Below are positions 5,967 through 25,687 of a stretch of 64,000 bases of DNA, piece by piece (position 1 is the first letter of the stretch; the number at the start of each line of letters is the position of its first letter). Source of the stretch: a virus; the IMG/VR virus record IMGVR_UViG_3300046808_001241, positions 124,001-188,000 of that record. One strand, written 5' to 3'. The position numbers and the translations under genes are program-made. The notes below the pieces were generated by a model. It had not been told where the DNA came from. It was given only the letters and a program-made list of their open reading frames with translations, and made no database searches.

Positions 5967-6815
5967 TTAAGAATAAATGGCAGTTAACCTGCCTGTCCAG
6001 TTTGCGTTGTTTACAGTTTGTGTAGAAGAAACAGTTCCTACATCTGTATATGTTAGTTTAGAAATATTCCAAGCTGGTTCGTTTTCTAAAGATCCTACGG
6101 GGGCATTTCCGCAATAAGAAACACTATAAGAACTGTATTCGACGTAGTCGTGTTTTTTTAAAGTTTGTTGAGAACTTCCCCAATTTGAGGAGTTTGTTTG
6201 AACAATAGTATAAGTGTCTTGCCAAACAGACGTAAGAGCTCTGACTTCAGTGTCTTGGCCTGCAATTCCTTCAGCAATAATTCCAGTTAACCCTGAACCG
6301 TCTCCATAAATCTTTCCAGCAGCTGTTAAGTTATTAACATATGTGAACCCGGAAAGATGAGATGTAATATTAGAACCCAGAATAAACGACTCGGAATGGT
6401 TTAATGTGTTATTGACGCCTCCTAAAATTGCTCCAAAGTCCCCTCCGGTCAATATTGTGTTATTAGAACCATTTCCTATTAATGCATAGTCTGCTTCAAT
6501 ATCATTATCCGATCCATTGATGACTGTTGAACCGGCTCCAGAGACGTCGTTGTTTACTCCTCCCAGAACTCCTGCTAAAAGTCCTGTAACTGTATTCGAC
6601 CCATATTGATAATTTGAAGAGCTTAGGCTTACATCAAGAGTATAAGGTTGTTGCTCAGCGTTTAAAAACGTTTTAACCGTGTTATTAGTAGCTTTAGTAA
6701 ACAGTTTTCCGTCTGCTGTATTGACTGCAATTTCCCCAGCCGACAACGAAGCAGTAGCAGGAACCACCCCACTGTTGGAATTTCGTTTATGAAGAATCGT
6801 CGACGGAGCAGACAT
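5967..6815 (-). CDS. Tail-fibre protein with YadA-like head repeats
   Basis: A 282-residue protein. Residues 1-45 have the motif ILHKRNSNSG, then LSAGEIAVNTADGKLFTK, a module at the N-terminus of many phage fibre proteins. Residues about 75-150 contain repeated turns such as LAGVLGGVNNDVSGAG, NGSDNDIEADYALIG and AILGGVNNTLNHSES, which resemble left-handed YadA-like head repeats of trimeric adhesins. The segment VWQDTYTIVQTNSSNW is shared with the fibre gene at 32897-33715. The C-terminus is beta-rich. A late-type octamer lies six bases before the ATG. Confidence 0.75.
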   Translation of the reverse strand: MSAPSTILHKRNSNSGVVPATASLSAGEIAVNTADGKLFTKATNNTVKTFLNAEQQPYTLDVSLSSSNYQYGSNTVTGLLAGVLGGVNNDVSGAGSTVINGSDNDIEADYALIGNGSNNTILTGGDFGAILGGVNNTLNHSESFILGSNITSHLSGFTYVNNLTAAGKIYGDGSGLTGIIAEGIAGQDTEVRALTSVWQDTYTIVQTNSSNWGSSQQTLKKHDYVEYSSYSVSYCGNAPVGSLENEPAWNISKLTYTDVGTVSSTQTVNNANWTGRLTAIYS

Positions 6816-6820
6816 CTGAG

Positions 6821-6964
6821 TTATTTATTACTTTTTAATTCAGATTTACACAGAAGTTCTTGTTTGATCTGCTTAATCTTTGGCTTAACAGTGGTTACTT
6901 TTTGCAACTCCGCAGATTGAGTTGTAATAGATTTAATAAAAATGTTTTTAAAAATTTCAAACAT
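6821..6964 (-). CDS. Short 47-residue open frame upstream of the YadA-like fibre
   Basis: An ATG at 6964 opens 47 codons ending in TAA at 6821-6823. The product is basic with a predicted N-terminal helix (MFEIFKNIFIKSIT). The end of the gene overlaps the late-type promoter of the next gene. It is too short for confident calling; spacing and direction fit the operon. Confidence 0.4.
   Translation of the reverse strand: MFEIFKNIFIKSITTQSAELQKVTTVKPKIKQIKQELLCKSELKSNK
6822..6829 (-). promoter_or_regulatory. Late-type octamer for 5967-6815
   Basis: AATAAATA on the minus strand, six bases before the ATG at 6815. It differs from TATAAATA only at the first base. Confidence 0.5.
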
Positions 6965-6975
6965 AGGAATACTTA

Positions 6976-7161
6976 TTAAAAGGTACCCATGTCTGTTATG
7001 GTGTTTCCTGAAAGATTTTGAGATTCTGAAGAGCCAATATAAAGAGTTCCTCCTACCTCATTGACTGCCAACTCCCCAGGACGCAGCATTGGAGGAGGTC
7101 CTGGAGCTCCACTTACTCGTCTTTTGATTAAAATTGTGCAATACTTTCTTTGTTCTTCCAT
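6976..7161 (-). CDS. Miniature fibre N-terminal module
   Basis: A 61-residue protein that is almost entirely one module: ILIKRRVSGAPGPPP, then LRPGELAVNEVGGTLYIGSS. The same module forms the N-terminus of the 883-residue fibre at 12800-15451 (ILIKRRLTGAAGAPG, then GELAFNEVDSVLYYGS). The remaining residues end in DMGTF, similar to the DGGSF/DGGYF ends of neighbouring virion proteins. It is either a stand-alone docking/cap protein or the remnant of a fibre that lost its shaft. Its ATG directly abuts the preceding gene's stop. Confidence 0.65.
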   Translation of the reverse strand: MEEQRKYCTILIKRRVSGAPGPPPMLRPGELAVNEVGGTLYIGSSESQNLSGNTITDMGTF

Positions 7162-7365
7162 CTAACTACTTAAGTTTTGACTCTGGAGAGACATCATATG
7201 TTCATCTTGAAACATACTTTTGTACGGTTCATCACAATCTTCTGAGATAATCCAACCGAGTTCATTCAGAGCTTCTTCCAATGCAAGTTCGTAAGAAAGA
7301 GAGTTCAGCACAATAGTTTTAGGTGACTCGTCTTTCGAAGTTATTGTAAAAATTTTTCTTGGCAT
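7162..7365 (-). CDS. Small conserved-looking hypothetical protein
   Basis: A 67-residue acidic protein starting at MPRKIFTITSKDESPKTIVL and continuing ALEEALNELGWIISED. A longer frame upstream would need a TTG start at 7413, so the ATG at 7365 is preferred. The pattern of short strands then an Ala/Glu helix is common in small phage proteins of unknown function. It abuts the mini-fibre module gene downstream. Confidence 0.55.
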   Translation of the reverse strand: MPRKIFTITSKDESPKTIVLNSLSYELALEEALNELGWIISEDCDEPYKSMFQDEHMMSLQSQNLSS

Positions 7366-7413
7366 AATTGTTTTAGCTTTTTTTTGATAAGCTCTATTAA
7401 TTGTTCGTCCCAA

Positions 7414-7768
7414 AATTTAAAAATTTCTCATGAAATATTTAAGCTAATTAATGTGAGACAGAAAATGTAAATACTTTAATGACGGGATTGATTACGAAGT
7501 CAAATATAAAAAAGGCATTGAACTCGAAAAAAATTGAAAAGACGAACACGAAATCGCCAAAAACCTCAATCGAGTATCGAGATTGCTTTTGTACTTAAAT
7601 ACCAGACATGTTTGATGTTCTTGTATATTGTTTAGAAGAATACGAAAAACGCTTGGATTCTAGAGACTCAATGTGTGATCTCGTAGACGATAAAAATCAA
7701 AAAGATATTAATAATATATATATGCAATAAAACAGCTTTCTCAAAATATTATAAAACGTTTTGATGCT
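7414..7768. other. Low-coding intergenic stretch with possible gene remnants
   Basis: About 355 bases with no convincing gene. On the + strand the frame from about 7457 reads YFNDGIDYEVKYKKGIELEK and, after one TGA, KDEHEIAKNLNRVSRLLLYL up to 7609. This looks like real coding sequence broken by a stop. A short + strand frame at 7608-7730 follows. No hairpin terminator stands out. The stretch separates the adhesin genes from the glycan cassette. Confidence 0.4.
7608..7730 (+). CDS. Possible 40-residue protein
   Basis: ATG at 7608 to TAA at 7728-7730 gives an acidic peptide beginning MFDVLVYCLEEYEKRLDSRD. It has protein-like composition and a helical pattern but no recognisable ribosome site or relatives. 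It may be a small early gene or part of a decayed one. Confidence 0.3.
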   Translation: MFDVLVYCLEEYEKRLDSRDSMCDLVDDKNQKDINNIYMQ

Positions 7769-7957
7769 CTAGTGAAAATCCCTTAGGTAGCTTTTAGGTT
7801 CGTCTGCAGAACCTTCAGAATCTGCAACGTCGCTTGTGCTTTCATAATCATCCTCTGCATAATGTCCATAATGTTGTTTGTATAATTCAGGAAAAAGAGT
7901 ATAGATTTCAACTCTCATGCAATATTCAGCGTCATCTTCCCATTCAAACTGTTTCAT
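7769..7957 (-). CDS. Small acidic hypothetical protein
   Basis: A 62-residue, strongly acidic, Tyr-rich protein (start MKQFEWEDDAEYCMRVEIYT). It is the last gene of the glycan-modification cassette, 12 bases after the WcbI-like gene's stop. I do not recognise it. Confidence 0.5.
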   Translation of the reverse strand: MKQFEWEDDAEYCMRVEIYTLFPELYKQHYGHYAEDDYESTSDVADSEGSADEPKSYLRDFH

Positions 7958-7969
7958 AAATTCTATTAT

Positions 7970-8801
7970 TCACACTATATCTTCAACCTTCAAATCCCTT
8001 CCTTTAAAGTTTCTGTAGTCTAAATTAGGAAACGTTTTTGTGAAAAAATTAAACTGTCTTGGGTCTACGCTATCGAACCCTGGATACTCTAAATTCGCAA
8101 TAGGATAAACAGACCTGTCTATGTCCAATATTTTGTATAACCTGTTTATCGTCTCTGTAAAATAACATTCATTCATATGATTATGAGAAACACATAATAA
8201 TTTGTTTTGAAATTCTTTTTCTATATAATCACACATATTAATCCGATTATCATATAAATCAGATTCTTCTTTATATCTTTGCCTGTTTTCGTTTCTATAT
8301 TTTTGATAATTTAGATTAAATGGATATTCATTTTTCAATATTGCAGCAAGAGCAGGATCCTCGGATTTTTGGAGATAGTTTATTATTTCTTCGGCATTAT
8401 TTGCTTTAGTTTTAACGTATTCTATGTACGGAGAAAATCGCCTTGCATCTGTTAAATGAGCAAAAAACCGAGTATCCGGAATACAAATTTTTAAACCGGT
8501 TGCTATTGTATCATGTAAGTAGGTTGTTTTGAGTTCATCTATTACTGATGTTCCAGAGTGATCTTGAAATACAAAAATCTCAGCCTCTCTAATTTTAGAA
8601 TGAATACAGTCCTTATAGATTTCTTGAGCTTCTCTGTTTTCAGGAGACCACACAGCAAAGACACCATGTTCGTTCCAAAAAGGTTTCAAACCACAGTCCT
8701 TGCAAAGTTGAACGTCAAATTTATCCGACAATTTTAATCTAAAATGTTTGGCGACAACTCCAATTTGGCAGTTGCCATAAAATAATATCTTTTTTTTTCA
8801 T
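7970..8801 (-). pseudogene. WcbI-like polysaccharide-modification protein, frameshifted at A9
   Basis: The intact frame from 8797 to 7970 encodes about 275 residues beginning KKKILFYGNCQIGVV. The GNCQ motif after a hydrophobic strand, the later IFVFQDHSGTS segment, KICIPDTRFF and VSHNHMNECYF together resemble the WcbI family, SGNH-like proteins of capsular polysaccharide biosynthesis. No ATG lies in this frame: a TTG at 8731 would delete GNCQ. An ATG at 8799-8801, three bases after the upstream gene's stop, is one base out of frame because of a nine-adenine run (8790-8798). Eight adenines would give MKKKILFYGNCQ. So the gene is either broken, switched by slippage, or carries a homopolymer sequencing error. 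It belongs to the sulfotransferase/glycosyltransferase cassette. Confidence 0.65.
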
Positions 8802-8804
8802 TGG

Positions 8805-8990
8805 TTAATTATAATTTGCCAGCTTGCTGATTTGACTTTCCAAAAAAATTATATGCTGGATAAAATCATATTTTTCGCATATAATTGCTTCGAGTTCTTG
8901 TCTTAATTTTATATTTTGATTTTCAATAGACAAACTGTCTATTTCCTCAAATAGTAATTTATCGATTACTGGTGAATCTCCAAAGGTCAT
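8805..8990 (-). CDS. Small coiled-coil-like hypothetical protein
   Basis: A 61-residue protein, mostly helical by composition (IDSLSIENQNIKLRQELEAI), with heptad-like spacing. Its ATG overlaps the stop of the upstream glycosyltransferase-like gene by four bases, and its stop lies three bases before the WcbI-like ATG. This tight packing supports it being a real member of the cassette. Function is unknown. Confidence 0.55.
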   Translation of the reverse strand: MTFGDSPVIDKLLFEEIDSLSIENQNIKLRQELEAIICEKYDFIQHIIFLESQISKLANYN

Positions 8991-9688
8991 TTCGTATATT
9001 GTTTGATGATGTCACATCTTGCTACATCATCAAATTTTATATCGGTTTTGTTGCAAAATTCCTTGCAAGCGTAGTGGGAATAGTGAACAAGCGGTTTGTT
9101 CCAAAAATCATGTCTAGGAGGATCGGAAATAAAATTTCTATCTCTTGTCATTTTAATATCTTCGTCTTTGTCTATTATTTTGTCGTGATAATACAAACAG
9201 AAGAACTCTTGATCATGAAAATGTCTGAATTTTCGTTCTTTATACATTTCAATATATTTTTTTATGTTTTGTTCCGTAACACTAATAAATTTTTTGCACA
9301 AGGTTAAAAACTGCGATGGGGTTCCGCTAGCGAAACACGGACAACAATTATCCATTAGATGCAATGTGTTTTCTGGTTCGATTGGATTAAAATTGTGATT
9401 TATCACATCATAATCGCTTACATAAAATTTTTCCTCAATCTGAGTAGAATAAGCTAACCATCGAAGCCAGCAACTTAAACCATATTTTTTTAAAGGCATT
9501 CCTGCAATTTCTTGATGAAGTCTGGTTGTTTCTGCAACAAATTCTTTATAAAAATCTGCTTTCTCAGCATCCTTCCTTGTTAGTACAATTGGCTCAAACC
9601 CGTGATCTTTCCAAGAATTCTCCCAAAGAGCAACCAACTCATCTTGATTTTGGAAATTAATGTTTTCGTAATATGTATAGATTTTCAT
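8987..9688 (-). CDS. Glycosyltransferase-like protein (GT-A, DXD)
   Basis: A 233-residue protein starting MKIYTYYENI. Residues about 20-50 (LWENSWKDHGFEPIVLTRKD) and 71-95 (CWLRWLAY, then FYVSDYDVI) match nucleotide-sugar transferase-like proteins in which the D-x-D at 92-94 binds metal and sugar nucleotide. The ATG at 9688 is chosen because the longer frame needs a TTG inside the upstream sulfotransferase gene. It ends four bases into the next small gene. It likely attaches a sugar to a phage or host glycan; donor and acceptor are unknown. Confidence 0.65.
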   Translation of the reverse strand: MKIYTYYENINFQNQDELVALWENSWKDHGFEPIVLTRKDAEKADFYKEFVAETTRLHQEIAGMPLKKYGLSCWLRWLAYSTQIEEKFYVSDYDVINHNFNPIEPENTLHLMDNCCPCFASGTPSQFLTLCKKFISVTEQNIKKYIEMYKERKFRHFHDQEFFCLYYHDKIIDKDEDIKMTRDRNFISDPPRHDFWNKPLVHYSHYACKEFCNKTDIKFDDVARCDIIKQYTK

Positions 9689-9689
9689 T

Positions 9690-10325
9690 TCAGTATGTGT
9701 ATTTAAACGTTTTAATGTCCCATTCAAAAAGATTATAAATTAAATTTTTTGTTTCTTCGTCGTAAAAATCCTTGTAGTCTTTTCTAACTATATATTTCTC
9801 CGAATTGTTTAAGTGTGGAACATCTATCTCTGAAGTAAATTGTAGCTTGTCTTTAATCAAAGAAAATTCTTCTTTTAAGTTTTCTAACTTGATGACACAA
9901 TCCAAAGAAAACGTGTCTTCTAATACCATGTAGGGGTTGGTCGTTAGCTCAGAATTAAAATTTTTCTTAAAATATTTAAAAGCAAATTCTTTAAACGTCA
10001 TTTGTTTAGAATCTTTGACGTATTTGGGCATTTTAAATTGATCTGCTCTTTTAAGAAAATATTCATATTCTTTGTGCCTAGTATGATTGTAAAAAGAGAC
10101 GGCTCGATCCCAAGGATTACGTATTACAGAAAACTTAAAAAACTCGCCTGGATCAAGTCCAAACGTTTTGATCTTGTCTACATGCATTTTTAAAGATCCA
10201 TGTTTAAACTTATGAACTTGTGGATATTTTTCCCTCAATTTTAAAAACCCTAACATCTCTTCAATGGATGTACCTCCGCATTTAGGAGGGTGAGTAAAAA
10301 TAATCTTTTTGTTTAAGTCGTACAT
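9690..10325 (-). CDS. Sulfotransferase-family protein
   Basis: A 211-residue protein. Residues 8-20 (IIFTHPPKCGGTS) form the 5'-phosphosulfate-binding loop, and residues 64-80 (KFSVIRNPWDRAVSFYN) the 3'-phosphate-binding motif of PAPS-dependent sulfotransferases. The C-terminal section with HLNNSEK and DFYDEETKNLIYNLF is typical of the carbohydrate sulfotransferase branch (Sulfotransfer_2-like). Expected activity is transfer of sulfate from PAPS to a sugar hydroxyl. Both key motifs look intact. It is packed in an operon with a second sulfotransferase-like gene immediately upstream and glycosyltransferase-like genes on either side. Acceptor is unknown. Confidence 0.85.
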   Translation of the reverse strand: MYDLNKKIIFTHPPKCGGTSIEEMLGFLKLREKYPQVHKFKHGSLKMHVDKIKTFGLDPGEFFKFSVIRNPWDRAVSFYNHTRHKEYEYFLKRADQFKMPKYVKDSKQMTFKEFAFKYFKKNFNSELTTNPYMVLEDTFSLDCVIKLENLKEEFSLIKDKLQFTSEIDVPHLNNSEKYIVRKDYKDFYDEETKNLIYNLFEWDIKTFKYTY

Positions 10326-11195
10326 TTATCTTATAAATGTTTTAAACAAAAGCTCGTCCCAATACGTTCTGTTTTTAAATGTTGTCTGTGCTTCTAATGA
10401 GAGTTGTTCGAAATTTATTTTCTTGTTTGATGTTTCGTTTTTTGTTAAAGTATCCCAAGCGCGTCTTTCAATTTGAGCAATATCAAAGCCGTAGCATACT
10501 AAAAACGTTTCTTGAAGTGCTTTGTCCGTTTCCTTAATATGAAACACGTGAAATTGTTTTAACATTTCCACTGTTTGTTGATATAAATCTTCGTTTATAG
10601 GAGTTGAATTGTTAGTGTTATTTAGATTACGAATCAACCAACTGTCTTCCAGTTCTTCTGATAACACATAATCCTCAAACGTGAGCGATTTAATCTTTCC
10701 GTGAGTTCGTTCATGAGCCGACAGATCAGACGTAATGTAGTTGTAAAATGACTGTGCTCTTAAAAACGGTTCTCTTAAAATTATAAACTGATGTAAATCA
10801 TAATTTTTTGCTAGCTTTGTTATTTCATCTCTACAACTAAAACCACGAGCTTCGATAATAATTCCAAACAAAAAAACATTTGCTAGCAGATTTTCGTTTA
10901 AATTATTAATATCAATATCCCATTCTGTATTAGAATGTTTTTTGTCAAAAACATTAAGAGTTTCACAAAAATAATTTGGATCCCCAATTAAAAATTTTGC
11001 AACTATAAATTCGTTGCTTTTAATCTGTAAACACTTGATAGAATCTTGATTAAGAGAGAAATTTTTTAGCCAATCTGTATAAATTCTTCTATAATACCTA
11101 AAGGACATTAACATCCAATCAGAAACATATGTTCCTGCATTTTTTGGTATATGATAAAAGACTGGTATTTTACGCTTTTGGATTGCAAGTTTCAT
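10326..11195 (-). CDS. Second sulfotransferase-like protein
   Basis: A 289-residue protein. VFYHIPKNAGTYVSDWM (residues 12-28) corresponds to the 5'-phosphosulfate loop of sulfotransferases, where K-x-x-G-T is usual, and FIILREPFLRAQSFYNYI (137-154) to the 3'-phosphate motif with conserved R and S. It is longer and more divergent than its downstream neighbour at 9690, with an inserted helical region between the two motifs. Substrate is probably a glycan. Its start overlaps the upstream glycosyltransferase-like gene by 26 bases, and its stop abuts the next start, so translation is likely coupled. Confidence 0.75.
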   Translation of the reverse strand: MKLAIQKRKIPVFYHIPKNAGTYVSDWMLMSFRYYRRIYTDWLKNFSLNQDSIKCLQIKSNEFIVAKFLIGDPNYFCETLNVFDKKHSNTEWDIDINNLNENLLANVFLFGIIIEARGFSCRDEITKLAKNYDLHQFIILREPFLRAQSFYNYITSDLSAHERTHGKIKSLTFEDYVLSEELEDSWLIRNLNNTNNSTPINEDLYQQTVEMLKQFHVFHIKETDKALQETFLVCYGFDIAQIERRAWDTLTKNETSNKKINFEQLSLEAQTTFKNRTYWDELLFKTFIR

Positions 11196-11982
11196 TTAAC
11201 CAGTAGTTGTATTCTGGGCACGTGACAATATCTGCTAAAGAAGTATCTTTACAACCGTGATGAACTACTGCCTCTGGATAGATCGGTTCATCATATGTTA
11301 CTACTCCATTCAAATCTCCATTATCCTCGCCTTTAATCATATAAGGATTTGTGTGAATTTTATAATTTAATGTTCTGAATCCTTGCTGAATAAGTTTTGT
11401 ATCAGCAGTATGCGGCATTATTTCCCATTGTGTAACGACATCAAAAGCAGTTGGGAGCTGATCAACATATTGCCAGATAGTGCAAATTTCATCGACTCTT
11501 GGAGGATATACGGCAGTTCCTTGCAAGTGTTCTGCAATATTAATTATATATTCATCTTTTGTTACAGTAGTTGTATTTTGAATAGTACCAAAACATGGTT
11601 TGCCACATTTGTGATATGCTTCTTCTAAAACATCTGCCCATTTTGGTTTTAATGCTATACAATCAAGCTCCATCCAAAACCATGGCTGCTTGTTATCGAT
11701 TTCTTTTAAATATTCGATTGTATATTTCCAATAACAATTTGGACCTTGTGGCCAGCCACTTGTCCCATCTCCTTGTTTAAACAAATGCAGATTTGCTTTA
11801 TTAGGAAATTGATCTTTGATTAGATCAAAAACAGAACGAGCAAAGTGCTTGTCAGAAGGACGAGACACGACAAGCAATTCGTGATTCGTATATAAACCGA
11901 AGTGTCTTAGGCTCTTTATGAAACCTAAGACACTTAAAGGTTTTTGAAATTCGTAAGATGAAACAGGAACAATTATAAGCAT
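11170..11982 (-). CDS. Glycosyltransferase-like protein, first gene of the glycan cassette
   Basis: A 270-residue protein. The N-terminal strand LIIVPVSSYEF, the segment HELLVVSRPSD and the acidic ELD at residues 106-108 (WFWMELDCIALKP) fit a GT-A-like nucleotide-sugar transferase fold with an E-x-D/D-x-D metal site. The C-terminal VVHHGCKDTSLAD supplies His residues as in related enzymes. Similar genes occur in T4-like phages without known substrate. It is the first gene of the 11982-7769 cassette and has an AATAAATA late-type octamer five bases before its ATG, so the cassette is probably expressed late with virion genes. Confidence 0.65.
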   Translation of the reverse strand: MLIIVPVSSYEFQKPLSVLGFIKSLRHFGLYTNHELLVVSRPSDKHFARSVFDLIKDQFPNKANLHLFKQGDGTSGWPQGPNCYWKYTIEYLKEIDNKQPWFWMELDCIALKPKWADVLEEAYHKCGKPCFGTIQNTTTVTKDEYIINIAEHLQGTAVYPPRVDEICTIWQYVDQLPTAFDVVTQWEIMPHTADTKLIQQGFRTLNYKIHTNPYMIKGEDNGDLNGVVTYDEPIYPEAVVHHGCKDTSLADIVTCPEYNYWLNETCNPKA

Positions 11983-11987
11983 GGGCT

Positions 11988-11995
11988 TATTTATT
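11988..11995 (-). promoter_or_regulatory. Late-type octamer driving the glycan cassette
   Basis: AATAAATA on the minus strand with spacer AGCCC before the ATG. With T4 late promoter geometry, +1 would fall on the A of the start codon. Confidence 0.55.
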
Positions 11996-12009
11996 TTCCT
12001 TGTTTTAAA

Positions 12010-12711
12010 TTACAATTCGATTCCTGCTCCAGAATTATAAAGAGAAGAAACTTCTCCTAATGTAAGAGCCCTATTCCAGATACCAACTGCGTCAACCAAT
12101 CCTTTTCCATTTTGGCCGTCTCCTGCTCCTAAAACGAAGCTCGAGTCTTGAAATGCGTCCCCTGTGTTTTCCGTATGAAAGAGCTGTCCGTCTACATATA
12201 TTTTAACTTCCCCGATTGTGGAATCATGAGAAAGAACAGCATGCACCCAAACGTTCGAAGCTAAACTTCTCGAAGGTTCATTTCCTGTGGAAGGAAGATA
12301 AAAAGCCAAACGTCCGCCAGTATAACTATCAGCATAAACAGACGTTCCGAATGCTTTTACTACACACAAAGGAAACTCTTCAATTCCGTTTCTATTAATC
12401 CAGCAAGAATATGAGCCAGATGAGCCTGTTACAATAGAGGCAATTTGAGCTTCTAGTGTTTGATTTCCTTGTAGATTTGCTGCATTTCCGATCTTTCCAG
12501 AAGAGAAAGTTACTCCACCATTATTGGTAAGAGTATTTCCGTTTCCAGAAGAATCTGAAGTGTCGCTGAGTCTATAAAAAGCCTGAAGACCGCTCGATAA
12601 GCCGCCTCCTCCACCGCCTCCACCATAGCCATAGCTAGAGGAAACTACTCGCATTTTGCCAGTAGATGTAAATTTAACTTTTGCTGCAGATCGTATATTT
12701 AAAAGTGCCAT
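12010..12711 (-). CDS. LamG-domain adhesin with polyglycine linker
   Basis: A 233-residue protein. Residues 1-28 are a short docking region, followed by a glycine linker (YGYGGGGGGGG) and then a LamG/jelly-roll domain: LQAFYRLSDTSDSSGNGNTL, WVHAVLSHDS, VKIYVDGQLF and DAVGIWNRALTLGEVSSLYN. These are the classical landmarks of Laminin_G_3-like domains. It is likely a glycan-binding tail or capsid decoration protein. It lies at the head of the run that leads into the glycan cassette, and has a late-type octamer upstream. Confidence 0.8.
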   Translation of the reverse strand: MALLNIRSAAKVKFTSTGKMRVVSSSYGYGGGGGGGGLSSGLQAFYRLSDTSDSSGNGNTLTNNGGVTFSSGKIGNAANLQGNQTLEAQIASIVTGSSGSYSCWINRNGIEEFPLCVVKAFGTSVYADSYTGGRLAFYLPSTGNEPSRSLASNVWVHAVLSHDSTIGEVKIYVDGQLFHTENTGDAFQDSSFVLGAGDGQNGKGLVDAVGIWNRALTLGEVSSLYNSGAGIEL

Positions 12712-15451: not shown

Positions 15452-15577
15452 ATGTTTATTTTATTTTGTCTAAGATGTTGACTTCCAAAGCCAACTAAAT
15501 TACTTATCTAGTTTGTGTTATTTTTTTAAGCCCAGATCCCGTGAAACCCCGCTTTTTATCAGGCTTGAGAAAGATTT

Positions 15578-15859
15578 TTAAAAATAACCGCCATCTCGAA
15601 CATTCAAATTAACAAGATTTTTTGGAGACAAATATCCAATAACATCTGCTGGCTGAGCTGATGTAGCCATAATAAACGTGTCTTTATCGTCGTGTTTAAA
15701 GTATTCTGGTTCGCTCAAGTCTTTAGGAGCGTTATCTATATTGAGTCTTATTAAAATTTGAGGTGCATTAGCGTTCAATGCAGACAAGTTTTGCAAAGTT
15801 GTCAAGGCTTCGTGTCGCTGTTGCGTATACTGTCTACGATTAAAAATGTCTTGACTCAT
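15578..15859 (-). CDS. Small neck-associated paralogue ending in DGGYF
   Basis: A 93-residue protein. The final 65 residues resemble the C-terminal part of the genes at 15859-16206 and 16206-17252, including VNLNVRDGGYF at the end. The ATG overlaps the previous stop as TAATG, so translation is coupled. Together these three genes look like variants of one small domain attached to the neck region. No biochemical function can be given. Confidence 0.6.
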   Translation of the reverse strand: MSQDIFNRRQYTQQRHEALTTLQNLSALNANAPQILIRLNIDNAPKDLSEPEYFKHDDKDTFIMATSAQPADVIGYLSPKNLVNLNVRDGGYF

Positions 15860-16206
15860 TAGAAGTATCCTCCATCCATCATATTTACCTCTAGCAAGTT
15901 AACAGAGGAAACTGGTGTAGTATAGATAATCAAATCGTTTGGGTGATCGTCAGTATTAATTTCGTATACTTCTAGACCATCAACAATACCAACAAACGTT
16001 CTTCGCATAATAGATCCTTTGTTTTGCTCAAAGAATTCCCTTGTTTCTTTTGCGGAAGTTAATAATACTGTAGCTACAGAAGCTTGGTTTTCGTAAAATG
16101 GAATAGAAGCTGGTTGAGGAGTAAATGGAACACTTGGTGGAGGAACATAGTGATTTGCGTTCGTAACTCCTCCATAATAGCCATAAATTGCTGATTTATT
16201 TTTCAT
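15859..16206 (-). CDS. Small neck-associated paralogue
   Basis: A 115-residue protein. NANHYVPPPSVPF near residue 18 matches NPNHFVPPEPPTC in the C-terminal extension of the gp14-like gene. EINTDDHPNDLIIYTTPV with VNLLEVNMMDGGYF at the end matches its last 45 residues. It overlaps both neighbours as TAATG. It appears to be a free-standing copy of the extension domain of the neck protein, perhaps assembling with it. This is inference from sequence similarity inside the window. Confidence 0.6.
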   Translation of the reverse strand: MKNKSAIYGYYGGVTNANHYVPPPSVPFTPQPASIPFYENQASVATVLLTSAKETREFFEQNKGSIMRRTFVGIVDGLEVYEINTDDHPNDLIIYTTPVSSVNLLEVNMMDGGYF

Positions 16207-17252
16207 TAGACGAATCCTCCTTCGTATACATCAGTCAAGTTAATAAATGGTTGGTTTGTAGTATAGATGATATCATCTTCTTCCTTACCACTGGTTTGAA
16301 TCATGAATGTTTTTGTGCCGCTTACATCAGATATTAAAGTACGCAACATAACATTATTCTTTTGATCAAGCATGTAAATTTGCTCAAGCTGTGTTGCATT
16401 CAAGTCCGGAATTCCTGCAGTCAGCGAAGCAAATTGTGTTAATATATCAAGTTCGTTCTGAGTAAATAAAGCTTGTTTTGCATACGGTCCTGGAACAGCA
16501 CTCAAACTAGTCACAGTCAAGCCTTCTGGGCATGTTGGAGGCTCTGGTGGAACAAAATGGTTTGGATTGGCGTTTAAACCTGCAGGATCCTCTGAATAAT
16601 AATCGTATATACACTTTGCAGAGTTTTGTACAGAGTCTGGATATGGTTGGAAGAGCTCTTCTGGGTTTTCACCTCCTGCAAAACGTCCATAATCCCCTCC
16701 GTCAGAAATTTGCTTGTTGTTCGGACCAGTTTCAACACCGGGCTCAAACGAATACTCATAACGTTTGCACTTCATGTACCATACATAGTGGCCCATCAAA
16801 GCATTAGTCATCGGAAGGTATTCATCATCCCTTTCAGTTATTTCATAAATCGGTGCTGATCTTCCTCCGGGCCTGTCAGCAGCATATTCCGTTAATTGAA
16901 TGAGATCTCCAGCTTTTGGTTCAAAACCACAGCCAATCTTTTCATAAAATGAAGAAATATGAACAACTGCTGTCATATCACAATCAGCCATAATGCCGAA
17001 CTTAGAAAGCATTAATGAATCGTTTGTAATATCGGTCATTATGATCAAATTTTCTACTTTTCCGAATCTGGAAGTAGGATCTTCCCCATAAAGAAAATTG
17101 TGAGAACTTATTGTATAACCGTTTGTATAGTAGGTAACAGACGTTCCATACTGCTCAATTTGTTCCTTCCACCATTTTGAGTAGTTTTCCCGCTCATTAG
17201 CGTTGTTCCGTTTGTTTAAGAAACGGATCTTGTCTGTTGAAGTTGTTAGCAT
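16206..17252 (-). CDS. 14: gp14-like neck (head-completion) protein with C-terminal extension
   Basis: A 348-residue protein. Residues about 24-190 follow the pattern of T4-like gp14: WWKEQIEQYGTSVTYYTN, then NFLYGEDPTSRFGKVENLII, LSKFGIMADCDMTAVVHISS, PKAGDLIQLTEYA, then YEITERDDEYLPMTN and KRYEYSFE. gp14 joins gp13 at the head-tail interface. Residues about 220-348 are an added domain ending INLTDVYEGGFV that is shared with the two small genes downstream. The start ATG at 17252 overlaps the upstream gene by seven bases. Confidence 0.7.
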   Translation of the reverse strand: MLTTSTDKIRFLNKRNNANERENYSKWWKEQIEQYGTSVTYYTNGYTISSHNFLYGEDPTSRFGKVENLIIMTDITNDSLMLSKFGIMADCDMTAVVHISSFYEKIGCGFEPKAGDLIQLTEYAADRPGGRSAPIYEITERDDEYLPMTNALMGHYVWYMKCKRYEYSFEPGVETGPNNKQISDGGDYGRFAGGENPEELFQPYPDSVQNSAKCIYDYYSEDPAGLNANPNHFVPPEPPTCPEGLTVTSLSAVPGPYAKQALFTQNELDILTQFASLTAGIPDLNATQLEQIYMLDQKNNVMLRTLISDVSGTKTFMIQTSGKEEDDIIYTTNQPFINLTDVYEGGFV

Positions 17253-19906: not shown

Positions 19907-22900
19907 CTAACCATTTTCTGAACAAGTTGGATCAAAATAATCAAATAATAATTCTAAATTTGTCCAAAGTTGGTTCGACAACCGATTTATAACAGCATTG
20001 GTTACGATTTCGTTTTGACCAAGTATTAGGTCGTCTTTCGAATATACAGGAGCTCTATATGACTTGCAACCAGTTTCAGAATAAAATAATGAAGTTCTAA
20101 ACAGTTCGATGTTATCCCACAACCGATGGAATGATTTCAAATAAACCCAAGGTTGAATATATTCTTCTTTATGAACAAGAATTTCATGTAAGTCCCAATA
20201 AAGTTTTTCTGAAATTACTGCTTTTACGTCAGTAATTTTCATTAGATCTGGAATTTTTAAAATCTTATCCCCAATTGTTACATAAATGTTTCTGAACTTA
20301 TCTTGCATGATAGAATTGTACCCTTGCAAGATAGCTCCTGAACCACACTTATATTCATTTAATAAGAGCTCAAATAAGGTTCCAGTTCTAAAAAACTTTG
20401 TAATTCCAAAGTCATGAGTAATGTAAATTACTTCCCTATTAAAACTTGTATTAATCTTTTTAGGATTTATTACTTCAGCTGGCCAACTATACTCAAACAA
20501 ATACACTCCTTCTGAATCGAAAACATATATAGCTTTAGGAGTCAAGCAATGAGTATTTTGCTGAGAGTCAACACAAACTGATATTGGTGCGTTGTCTAAA
20601 AATTTATCGCTTGTTATTACTTTTTGGCTTTTACCATTGAATGTAAATTTTTTGACACACTCATTTCCTGTATCAGCAATCCAAACATCATGATCTTGAT
20701 CTATATGAATATCGCTTGGGTTATTCAATCCTTGAGGAGTTGTTGCTAAGCCAAAAGTACCCCATGATGTAAACAACTTAAAGGAATCTTCCTTAATAGA
20801 AAATACACTCACTTTAGATAAGACATTATCTAATACAAACACTTTATTTTCATCGGATGCAACGCCTACGATATTTTGGAACGAGAACAGCTCATCAGCA
20901 GCTCCTCTTCTTGCAAGATAGGTTGCAACATAATCAGTTTTAATTAAATGAATTTCTGTTGGATATGCAACTACTAAACGATCTAAAGTACTAATATGTT
21001 CTGCGTCAACTAAGCTACATCTTTGAGTAAACGAACAAGACGGAATCTGAAAATATTGACTATCAATTGTAGAAATCTTCCAGTTGTCCCTGTCACAGTT
21101 CAGAGACTCAGAGTCAGATTCACATTTTTCAAACTTCCATTTTTTAGCAAGATCGGAAGCACATTTTGTATCTTTCCACTTAACGTTTAATTCAGAAACA
21201 TTACAGCGTCTTGATTTCCACTTCCATTCGATACAATATTTTCCTAAGCACGTCGGATCGGTTTGAGAACCTTCACATTCGTGATATTCCCATGTTAATG
21301 GAAAGTTTGTTCCTTCACATTCCAAAGCTGCCCAATTTGCTTCTAATTCAACGTTCGTGGGACATTCAAGATCCTGCCAAACGTAAACCGGAGTAGTGGT
21401 TTCAATTGTTGTAGAAGCAGCTCCTCTGGGTCCAAGCCATCCGTAAAATTTATTTTTTGATTTGTAAAGCCTTGTATATTTGTTGAGATCTTCTAAAGCA
21501 TTATAAATTTTTTCCAAAACACTGTTAACATTGTCTGCAACTGCCCATTCATTAGGAGTCATTCTTGGAGTTTGATTGTAAGGCAACTCAACAGGAGTAA
21601 ACTCTGTTTGAAAATAATCTTCATTTACTTCATCATATTGCTGAACAATTTCAACCATTCCCGGAAACACCACAGTTGTTGGTTGAGAAATATTCGTATT
21701 GGTATTCTTAAGCAAGGCAGTAGCAGATAGATCAGCTACTCCAATCTGATCGAATATCATCGTTCCTGATAAACTAGATCCAGATAAAGTCAAAGTAGTA
21801 GGAGATAGTTCTGATTGCAAAACTATATTTTCAAGTTGATAAGGAGCACTCGGAGTTCCAACAGAGAAAATTTCTACAGGATTGTTTTTGATATTAAAAT
21901 AGTTTTTAACAAACAATTTTGCAAAAGGAACTGGAGATACCGTAGCGCTTACATCAAATGTTTGAGTAGTTTGTTTTGGAATCCAATCAAAGGGAGTTGC
22001 AGAAATTACAATAGTCTTTGTTGCTGAAGTATATACGGCAACTGTAGTATTAAACGTCGAGGCGCATTTAAAATAATCTAAGTTGAGATCTTTATCATAG
22101 CTTAAACCGAATTGATAAGCATAAATGCTAGGCAGAAAGCTTGTTCCTGAGAACGAATCGTATTCCCCACCCCACTCCCCAATATCAGATGTGGCTTCAA
22201 CTCCCCACTTTGATCCATTATATGTTTCTGTTAAAACTCCGGAAGCAGAAGGAACGGTTATAATTCCCAAAAATTTTTGAGAAGAATAATCAAATGGCAA
22301 CGAGAACGAAGGTTGAGAAAACGGAGAATCGAACGAAACTGGAGTAGAGCTTGGATACGACCTTATTTCGATGTCTTCTTTTAAATAGCTATTTGAAGAA
22401 CTTGTTCCTCCCGTAAGGTTCTGAGTCGAGGTGAAGTACGGATAAAACTCTAAATTGCCTGTATTATCTTTATACGTTAAAAGAGGAGCTGTGGAAGGAA
22501 TTGCATTAGTTGTTACAAAAAGACTAACAGGATAAGATTGTTCTAAATCCGGTTCTGATGTAATTGTAGTTGTTGCTGTAGCAGTATTGACCAAAACAAC
22601 ATCTAATAAAGAGGTTGCATCTGAAGTATTCAATATTTCTGTTACACTATTGCCAACAAACCAATTTGCAGTTGCTCCATTGGTTGTCGTTGAAGAAAGT
22701 CTAACAACTTCTGTGTGGCCTTCCCCATAGAAAAATGCTCCTTCTGATTGCGTATAGTTTGAGGAATTTAAATTGATCTGTTGAACTGTTCCTCCTACAT
22801 TTTTAATAACAGAGCTGGGATAGACGATAAACTCTGCTGTCGGAATTGTTGCAACAAACACAGAAGAGAGTTGAAACTCTGCTACAGGTTCAAAATCAGG

Positions 22901-23203: not shown

Positions 23204-25687
23204 TCAGTCGACCCAAAGCACCTCAATTAGATCAACATACATTGGCTGAAGTTGAGTAACCATTTGTTTAATTTGATCTTCAATGATTTGTCTTGTTTTT
23301 GTGTCTTGTATTGCTGTTCCTTTAAGTTTAATTTTATAAAAAGGAGCTTTTGAGCCTGGAAGTTTGTTTTTAAACATCCTTTCAACCGTTTCGATATATT
23401 GAATATTTGGAACAGGAAGCGTCCAATAGATATCATCAGCAGGAATGGATGATCTTAAGAAAAACTGAAACTTGTTATTTTCTAAACAATAGTTATAAAT
23501 CTTGATGTCTTCGAATTCTCCGTTGAAAATGGAAGATACGTATCCAATTTCATCATTGAATCCTGTTTGAGAACCTGCAGAAGATCCAATAAAAAACAAA
23601 GGCTGGTTGTCGTACGACAATTCATATTGGGCGGAATATGGCAGTTCCATTAACAATTGCTCGCCAACATACACAGAAAACTTTTTGTTTCTAAGAGTAA
23701 CGATTATATGCTGCCAGCTATCATTGTCCCAGTTGCTAATAGAAGCTTGTGAACTAAATTGCGTAAAAGTCAATTCTTCTTGAGTTTTGTCTTTTAGCGA
23801 AGCTCTTAAAACAAGCTGAGTTTGATTGTTGTAAGGAGATAAATTTTTAAAAATTCTTCTATGCTCGTATCCAGTAAAGTCTCCTTTAGCTAAAAACTTA
23901 AATTGATTTGCATCTTGATTTAAAACAGAAAGAGTTGTTGAATTGAATAGAGCTAGAATGCTAATTGTATTAATCAACTGACCAGACATGTCGTGTATAT
24001 ACAAATACGGCTCATCAGAATAATAAATTACACAATTCCATTGTCTTGTTTGAGACTCCCTATCATACACGCAGAAAAAGCTAATGTTCTTTTGTTCGTG
24101 ATTAATATCTAGACCAACATCTGTTGTTAGTACAGGATCAGAAAGAGGTTCTGATTTTGAATCTATTACTGTTAAACTATTCCTACCATGCAATACCCAA
24201 AGCCTATCGTACGGATCAATTGCTACATTGGTAGCTTTGTCTGAAAATACGTGATACAGAGTCTCATTACCGTTTTGTTTTTTGTATAAGTTTTGATCAG
24301 AGCGAGGAATAAACCATTGCGTAGTTTCTATAAATTTAGAATCAAAAACATCATTCGAAATATCAAGCTCAAAAAAATCTGCTTCGCTGTTATATCTATA
24401 CGAAGATACTGCAGACAAAGATGTTTGTTGAATAAGAGTGTTAACTAATTCCAATTTAAAATTAAAAGTATATAGAGCGATGTTAGTACGAATTATTACC
24501 GAATTATTTTTTCCGATCAGCATTTCAACTGGAAGTTCGTCAACACCACTGAACGTAAATGGAGTTTTAAGCTTTTTAGTTGAAGCTATTATCTTGCCTG
24601 TGTTGTCTATTTTATAAATTGTTCCAGAATTATCAGAATTACAAACAACTACGTTTTGATCAAAATCGATTGCAATTAGCTTTGGGGAAGCAAATATTTG
24701 TTGAGTGATTTGCACTGACTTATCCAAGTATCCAATAAGTCCTTCGTTAACGTAAAGTACGTGTCCGTAGTTTGTTTCTGGAATTACAAAGAACGGATAA
24801 CTACTCAGCGTTTGAACAAAAACTCCATAACCTCCTCCACTAGAAAAATTGCCAACTAGCTGAGTGGTTTGCGCATCATTCCAATTTGGACTTTGAGCCC
24901 AAAAAGCTAAAGTAAATTCATTTGTCGGACAGTAAGAGGAATTATATGTTAAAATAACCTCTGTATTTTTGTTATTATCGAATCTTATTACAGGATTGGT
25001 AACTCTTCCTGGATCTTCGTCTATTGTATATAGTTCAGATGTAGTTGCGGTCGTTGCAATTGCTGGTTCAATTCCAGAAACGCTATTAACTTGATTCGTA
25101 TTCCAATTTTTGAGATCTAGCTTAATATATTCCCCACTGAGACCTCCCAGTGTGCTGACAATATTGTTTGCAGTAGATTCCCCAACATGAAAGTATTTGT
25201 ACATTACTCCAGGCTCAAACATCATCTTTGACGGAACATCCCTAAAAATTGGATCATTGGGCGTATAAACTGGTCCTTCTGATAGCTGAGCAATTGCGAT
25301 AGAAAATTTAAACGAACCTGGATTATACATCCTATCCATCCATCTTAAAACTCCTTGAGGATCTTTGTATAGCCAACTGCAAAACCAAACGCCATCAGCA
25401 ACATCAGAAATTGGATCACCGTTCGGAGTAACATTTCCAAAGTTTTTTCTATTCTTAAAAATACGATCAGAAGCAGCAGGAAAAGGTCCTCCAGTTGCTC
25501 CATCAACGATCAACGAACTGTCTTTTAGTGAAATCGGCTTAGTATAAAACGGAATGTGAAAATATGTTTCTTTGTCAGCTTTTAGAATGAGTTCTTTTCC
25601 ATCATGCTGATAACCTAGTAAAATCTTTTCAGATCCTTCATCCCTATTTCTGTTTACGTAGAGTTTGTTATAAATTCGATCGCTCAT
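23204..25687 (-). CDS. Large virion protein: LamG-like domain split by a propeller
   Basis: An 827-residue protein. Residues about 230-290 (NPVIRFDNNKNTEVILTY, FTLAFWAQSPNW) start a concanavalin/LamG-like domain. Residues about 300-580 carry NHL/SMP30-like repeats (LIAIDFDQNVVVCNSDNSG, VAIDPYDRLWVLHG). Residues about 640-740 (WQHIIVTLRNKKFSVYVG, then NGEFEDIKIYNYCLE) supply the other LamG half. The last 75 residues differ and may dock to the baseplate. The gene overlaps the one at 25684 by ATGA. A tail-tip adhesin is inferred. Confidence 0.65.
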   Translation of the reverse strand: MSDRIYNKLYVNRNRDEGSEKILLGYQHDGKELILKADKETYFHIPFYTKPISLKDSSLIVDGATGGPFPAASDRIFKNRKNFGNVTPNGDPISDVADGVWFCSWLYKDPQGVLRWMDRMYNPGSFKFSIAIAQLSEGPVYTPNDPIFRDVPSKMMFEPGVMYKYFHVGESTANNIVSTLGGLSGEYIKLDLKNWNTNQVNSVSGIEPAIATTATTSELYTIDEDPGRVTNPVIRFDNNKNTEVILTYNSSYCPTNEFTLAFWAQSPNWNDAQTTQLVGNFSSGGGYGVFVQTLSSYPFFVIPETNYGHVLYVNEGLIGYLDKSVQITQQIFASPKLIAIDFDQNVVVCNSDNSGTIYKIDNTGKIIASTKKLKTPFTFSGVDELPVEMLIGKNNSVIIRTNIALYTFNFKLELVNTLIQQTSLSAVSSYRYNSEADFFELDISNDVFDSKFIETTQWFIPRSDQNLYKKQNGNETLYHVFSDKATNVAIDPYDRLWVLHGRNSLTVIDSKSEPLSDPVLTTDVGLDINHEQKNISFFCVYDRESQTRQWNCVIYYSDEPYLYIHDMSGQLINTISILALFNSTTLSVLNQDANQFKFLAKGDFTGYEHRRIFKNLSPYNNQTQLVLRASLKDKTQEELTFTQFSSQASISNWDNDSWQHIIVTLRNKKFSVYVGEQLLMELPYSAQYELSYDNQPLFFIGSSAGSQTGFNDEIGYVSSIFNGEFEDIKIYNYCLENNKFQFFLRSSIPADDIYWTLPVPNIQYIETVERMFKNKLPGSKAPFYKIKLKGTAIQDTKTRQIIEDQIKQMVTQLQPMYVDLIEVLWVD

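What the first reader, a model, noticed from the sequence alone, without database searches (positions are those of the whole stretch)
8785..8810. Nine-adenine frameshift separates start codon from the WcbI-like gene
The ATG at 8801 follows the upstream stop by three bases and is followed by nine A. In that frame the protein ends soon. One A fewer gives MKKKILFYGNCQ and a full WcbI-like protein; the intact frame contains no ATG before the GNCQ motif. A9 tracts are known sites of polymerase slippage and phase variation. This could be an on/off switch for glycan modification in the virus, transcriptional slippage making a fraction of functional protein, or simply a sequencing error.
Basis: partly seen in the sequence, partly recalled or inferred. 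Interest (0 to 1): 0.72.

Follow-up and report, generated by a model that had tools for sequence, protein, structure and literature searches.

The report
Frameshifted start of a phage WcbI-like gene
In this large phage genome a sugar-modifying (WcbI-like) enzyme gene is put out of frame with its start codon by a run of nine A's; this is most likely a sporadic copying slip, since relatives are intact and keep no such tract, but reads or RNA would be needed to rule out a sequencing error or a switch.

Summary
On the minus strand, ATG 8801-8799 is followed by A9 (8798-8790). That frame ends after 20 codons. A 275-codon frame (8797-7970) with the GNCQ motif has no ATG before the motif. The gene is real. 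Thirteen homologous copies in 12 other viral records have an in-frame ATG or GTG 6-8 codons before YGNC. The family profile matches WcbI (4bqn, E 3e-8), the AlphaFold model's best three PDB matches are WcbI, and both CoA-pocket residues (Cys14, His201) are conserved. Codon usage of the broken frame is typical of the record. This A9 is the only A/T run of 9 or more inside a gene in 217 kb, and no other frame break was found. Relatives keep no A9: their runs are 4-8 A, often broken by AAG, and all are in frame. That argues against a conserved phase-variation or slippage device. In control scans about 1 of 137 ATG-A9 starts in viral contigs was out of frame. Best reading: a recent, sporadic one-base slip that turns off, or leaves leaky, an accessory glycan-modification gene in a sulfotransferase cassette. 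A consensus error cannot be excluded without reads. Nothing here positively supports an on/off switch.

The parts
8790..8798 (-). A9 tract directly after the ATG; only A/T run of 9 or more within a gene of the 217-kb record
8799..8801 (-). ATG start codon, out of frame with the long ORF
   Evidence: homologues use the corresponding ATG in frame
8739..8801 (-). short frame as written: MKKKDIILWQLPNWSCRQTF then stop
7970..8797 (-). open 275-codon frame of the WcbI-like gene, without its start codon; residues C10 and H207 of this frame correspond to WcbI Cys14 and His201
8805..8990 (-). upstream 61-codon ORF (predicted small protein), overlapping the stop of the previous gene by ATGA
8987..9688 (-). 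putative glycosyltransferase-like gene (judged by eye; no library match); homologues lie just upstream of WcbI-like genes in L016 and L019
9690..10325 (-). sulfotransferase (Sulfotransfer_2, E 6.6e-14)
10326..11195 (-). sulfotransferase-like gene (by weak match of a homologue in L020 to Sulfotransfer_2); homologues in the same cassettes
11170..11982 (-). gene of the same cassette, with a homologous region in a larger L016 protein; function unassigned

Best explanation
A genuine, recently intact WcbI-like gene (putative CoA-dependent acyl-transfer or glycan-modification enzyme) sits at the end of an accessory glycan-modification cassette in the tail-fibre region of a jumbo tailed phage. In the sequenced phage or population its Lys-coding poly-A stretch, right after the ATG, has changed length by one base through ordinary replication slippage. 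The ATG is therefore out of frame and most ribosomes make a 20-residue peptide. The enzyme is off, or made at a low level if RNA polymerase slips on A9. Shown: the gene identity, the intact state of homologues, the frame break and the absence of other detected breaks. Inferred: that the change is in the DNA and not only in the assembly, that it is recent, and that expression is low.
For: The frame break is present. All 13 homologous copies in 12 other records are in frame with a start 6-8 codons before YGNC. WcbI identity: 7 of 8 aligned sequences match PF18588; 6 of 7 rescanned homologues score 34-42 bits against a cut-off of 29.2; profile match to 4bqn E 3.1e-8; model pTM 0.81 whose three best PDB matches are 4bqn/4bqo at probability 1.0; Cys14 and His201 conserved (roles from PMC4104973). 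Decay is recent or nil: the 275 codons are open, codon score -3.84 against a mean of -3.86 for 117 genes, and 3 stop codons would be expected at 0.064 substitutions per site. The record is otherwise clean: no frameshift in 73.9 kb checked against relatives. Sporadic type: out-of-frame ATG-A9 starts occur in other viral contigs at about 1 in 137. The gene is accessory: absent from 50 structurally related records, many of them fragments, and the island is absent from six compared relatives.
Against: No reads, RNA or second isolate could be examined, so a consensus error remains possible. No close relative of the gene (over 41% identity) was found, so recent relaxed selection could not be measured. 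Near-identical records may have been left out of the collections by the tool.
Confidence: 0.57

Rival explanations
1. Assembly or sequencing error: the phage's DNA keeps the frame and the consensus miscounts a long homopolymer.
For: The break sits in the longest A run in any gene of the record, exactly where indel errors fall. The frame has no other damage and normal codon usage.
Against: No other frameshift in 73.9 kb of compared coding sequence, and the 8-base runs in ORFs do not break them, so the consensus is not generally indel-prone. In control scans out-of-frame A9 starts are only about 1 in 137, so such errors are uncommon in this collection.
Confidence: 0.22
2. Transcriptional slippage, incidental or selected: RNA polymerase slips on A9 so that a fraction of mRNAs encode the full enzyme, as in insect endosymbionts or Citrobacter tssM1.
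For: A9 is long enough for bacterial RNA polymerase to slip (review PMC5009743; PMC6260861). Frameshifted endosymbiont genes are rescued at 12-50% of transcripts, tssM1 on A11 at about 20%. The otherwise intact frame fits.
Against: A one-base loss, or a two-base gain, would be needed in the mRNA, and insertions outnumber deletions (PMC6260861). No homologue keeps a tract of 9, and many break the run with AAG. Minus-one ribosomal slippage would lead to the third frame, which also ends soon (from the sequence).
Confidence: 0.12
3. Phase variation: the tract is a contingency locus that switches the glycan-modification enzyme on and off in the phage population.
For: Surface-glycan genes are the classic targets of homopolymer phase variation in bacteria (own knowledge; abstracts seen). 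The tract lies at the 5' end of the gene and the frame is otherwise intact.
Against: The tract is not conserved: runs of 4-8 A in 13 copies, all in frame, mostly short or interrupted. No other coding tract of 9 or more exists in the record. My limited paper searches turned up no phage-borne homopolymer switch.
Confidence: 0.07
4. The gene really starts elsewhere, at TTG 8731 or a non-ATG codon, and the ATG-A9 is incidental.
For: A TTG-started ORF of 253 codons exists, 7 bases past the stop of the short frame.
Against: It would remove strand 1 and the CoA-binding Cys, both conserved in all homologues, and homologues start at the matching ATG.
Confidence: 0.02

Closest known systems
WcbI of Burkholderia pseudomallei (PDB 4bqn/4bqo, Pfam PF18588)
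   Same: Same fold (Foldseek probability 1.0), YG[NS]CQ motif with the CoA-binding Cys at the end of strand 1, and the His of the second domain; lies among glycan genes.
   Different: About 14% identity; phage-encoded; no single-sequence Pfam match for the window's protein; start codon out of frame in this record.
Frameshifted poly-A genes of Blochmannia and Buchnera (PMC3017870)
   Same: Otherwise intact gene with a short indel inside a poly-A tract.
   Different: One phage gene; the tract is not shared by relatives; no RNA evidence of rescue.
Citrobacter rodentium tssM1, A11 transcriptional slippage (PMC4256274)
   Same: Poly-A tract separating two frames of one protein.
   Different: There A11 lies far inside the gene, both products are used and slippage was shown; here A9 sits at the start codon and a 20-residue peptide is the default product.
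Homopolymer phase-variable surface-glycan genes of bacteria (e.g. Campylobacter)
   Same: Tract near the 5' end of a glycan-modifying gene.
   Different: Known tracts recur and vary between isolates (own knowledge); here relatives keep short or interrupted tracts, all in frame.

Membership tests
WcbI family (PF18588) | Profile match above the curated cut-off | tested here: inconclusive
   The window protein itself has no match; 6 of 7 rescanned homologues exceed 29.2 bits, and the window protein is 25-41% identical to its homologues.
WcbI family (PF18588) | WcbI fold | tested here: met
   AF2 model pTM 0.81; the only PDB matches below E 0.001 are 4bqn and 4bqo, probability 1.0, TM 0.51-0.52.
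WcbI family (PF18588) | CoA-binding Cys14 after strand 1 and His201 | tested here: met
   YGNC aligns with YGSC14 of 4bqn via homologue L009; invariant H207 aligns with His201 (residue counted by hand); roles from PMC4104973.
WcbI family (PF18588) | CoA binding and acyl transfer | not testable with these tools
   Transfer activity is unproven even for WcbI itself (PMC4104973).
Phase-variable (contingency) locus | Tract length varies between isolates, with on and off states | tested here: inconclusive
   No same-species isolate or read set was available; 13 homologous copies in other viruses are all in frame.
Phase-variable (contingency) locus | Tract retained across relatives | tested here: not met
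   Runs of 4-8 A; many homologues interrupt the run (AAAAAGAAAA).
Transcriptional-slippage gene | Homopolymer of at least 9 A/T at the frame junction of an otherwise intact gene | tested here: met
Transcriptional-slippage gene | Heterogeneous mRNA lengths restoring the frame | not testable with these tools
   No RNA data.
Transcriptional-slippage gene | Conservation of the slippery tract across relatives (for a selected device) | tested here: not met

The most novel reading that the evidence does not exclude
A jumbo phage carries a homopolymer switch, or a slippage-tuned start, on a WcbI-like glycan-modifying enzyme, giving heterogeneous surface or receptor modification within one phage population.
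Probability: 0.08. Interest if true: 0.6.

Novelty: new member of a known kind. Interest (0 to 1): 0.22.

Why it matters
If only a slip or an error, it is a caution: gene callers will miss this start and annotate a truncated protein without its active Cys. The useful by-product is a group of viral WcbI-like proteins, not matched in the annotated phage collection, that travels with sulfotransferases and a putative glycosyltransferase. If reads showed mixed tract lengths, it would be a rare example of homopolymer phase variation carried by a phage.

Tried and rejected
Direct family and phage-database searches with the window protein alone found nothing; a motif-based DNA pattern was needed to find relatives. 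A genome-contig scan with the profile found no relative. Near-identical contigs that would show tract-length variants were not returned by any scan, and same-genome records may be left out. I looked for other poly-A frame breaks in the record as a sign of a multi-locus switch or an error-prone assembly: none. The A8/A9/T10 tracts near the record's right end first looked like further cases but are intergenic. Control locus L224 looked broken but resembles a programmed minus-one tail-chaperone shift; L222, L223, L328, L383, L388 and L397 have an ATG of their own just downstream. Minus-one ribosomal frameshifting was rejected because it leads to another short frame.

Full report
What was checked. 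The window is positions 124001-188000 of a 217,182-base virus record. It is a tailed phage with a T4-type baseplate wedge protein, a homing/HNH endonuclease and ribonucleotide reductase. Its nearest named matches are to Synechococcus and Puniceispirillum phages for a virion protein, and to alphaproteobacterial phages among others for ribonucleotide reductase. The host was not determined. On the minus strand, ORF 8990-8805 stops at TAA 8807-8805; then come CCA, ATG 8801-8799, nine A (8798-8790) and G. The ATG frame ends after 20 codons. The frame that is open from 8797 to 7970 has 275 codons and begins KKKILFYGNCQ, with no ATG before codon 187.

The gene is real. A DNA pattern for KIxxYGNCQ in IMG/VR brought in true relatives, and a profile added more. 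Identity to the window protein is 25-41%. Six of seven rescanned homologues match Pfam WcbI at 34-42 bits (cut-off 29.2). The profile matches the solved WcbI (4bqn) at E 3e-8. An AlphaFold model of the window frame (mean pLDDT 81, pTM 0.81) has WcbI as its three best PDB matches. WcbI holds CoA between Cys14 and His201 (PMC4104973). YGSC14 aligns with the phage YGNC, and His201 with the invariant His207 of the window frame (residue number counted by hand from the alignment). The Cys lies ten codons into the open frame, so any start downstream of it, such as TTG 8731, would lose strand 1 and the Cys.

The homologues settle what the start should look like. Thirteen copies in 12 other records begin with ATG (GTG in two identical ones) 6-8 codons before YGNC, in frame, and most read MKKKI[LM]FYGNC or close to it. 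Their longest A run there is 4-8, and several have an AAG-interrupted form (AAAAAGAAAA). The A-rich start is thus plainly a set of lysine codons in A+T-rich genomes. No relative has A9 and none is out of frame. A conserved contingency tract or slippage site would be expected to leave a different pattern.

State of the broken frame. Codon usage in the open frame is typical of the record's genes (score -3.84; 117 genes mean -3.86, sd 0.08; shifted frames -4.57 and -4.75). With 5.7% of substitutions giving stops, three stops would be expected at 0.064 substitutions per site, so if the gene is dead it died recently.

Is the consensus generally faulty? All 17 A/T runs of 8 or more in the record were examined. 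Of the five runs of 9-10, all but this one are intergenic; the 8-base runs that lie in ORFs do not break them. No other long frame lacks its start in the way this one does, apart from frames judged by eye to be antisense, cut by piece ends or GTG-started. ORFs from six related records cover 73.9 kb of this record at 35% identity or more and show no frameshift; this test cannot see breaks very near a gene's end. The record is thus clean, which lowers but does not remove the chance of an error here.

How unusual is it? In 136 the ATG frame is the open one; in 23 more the tract is internal to a gene in another frame. One (L384) shows the same kind of lost start as the window. Other apparent cases have their own ATG nearby, run to a contig end, or look like a programmed frameshift (L224); L421 (start probably 9 codons downstream) was not resolved. 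So about 1 in 137 ATG-A9 starts is out of frame. That is rare but ordinary, and a scan of many windows will meet it.

Setting. The gene follows a putative glycosyltransferase and sulfotransferases. The same neighbours recur beside WcbI-like genes in L016, L019 and L020, with a sugar epimerase/dehydratase in L016. Fifty records of structurally related phages, many of them fragments, lack a WcbI-like gene (the same profile did find all 13 positive records). The island 5967-12711 has no counterpart in six compared relatives, while flanking genes do. It is an accessory glycan-modification cassette in the fibre region. Loss of such a gene is likely to be tolerated (inference).

Mechanism and rivals. 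The most likely history is a replication-slippage change of one base in a lysine-coding A run. If real, the phage makes little or no enzyme. Some may come from RNA polymerase slippage on A9: endosymbiont genes of this kind are rescued at 12-50% of transcripts (PMC5009743; PMC3017870) and tssM1 on A11 at about 20% (PMC4256274). But insertions outnumber deletions in the systems measured (PMC6260861), and a single insertion does not help here. Minus-one ribosomal slippage leads to the third frame, which also ends soon. Consensus error is the main rival. Phase variation has no positive evidence. Reads across the tract would decide.

Verdict. Observation confirmed; interpretation as a switch or slippage device not supported beyond possibility; an ordinary sporadic homopolymer frame break in an interesting accessory gene.

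Noticed in passing
L028:4603-5036 (record about 24603-25036): ARAGORN calls a tmRNA with an unusual 33-residue tag beside a cluster of tRNAs; a phage-borne tmRNA would be notable but the call may be false.
   Followed up: no
L027:19632-19706: tRNA-like gene with a predicted four-base anticodon (gacg).
   Followed up: no
L384 (ATG-A9-GATA site): A second natural case of an ATG-A9 start out of frame with a 90-codon ORF in another viral contig.
   Followed up: partly
L224, around the A9G site: 131-codon ORF followed at the A9G tract by a 137-codon ORF in the minus-one frame, resembling a tail-chaperone programmed frameshift.
   Followed up: partly
L034 near 14572, L035 near 1417 and 6952: Three paralogous genes with a shared N-terminus (MIKL.GKT.IQGKTIF.TG); A8, A9 and T10 tracts lie just outside them.
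   Followed up: partly
Record behind L020 (G062): 15529-16329 and 20678-21454: Two WcbI-like copies in one 23-kb viral contig.
   Followed up: partly
window 5967-12711: Accessory island (protein with a weak Mtd_N match, LamG protein, sulfotransferases, putative glycosyltransferase, WcbI-like gene) with no counterpart in six compared relatives.
   Followed up: partly
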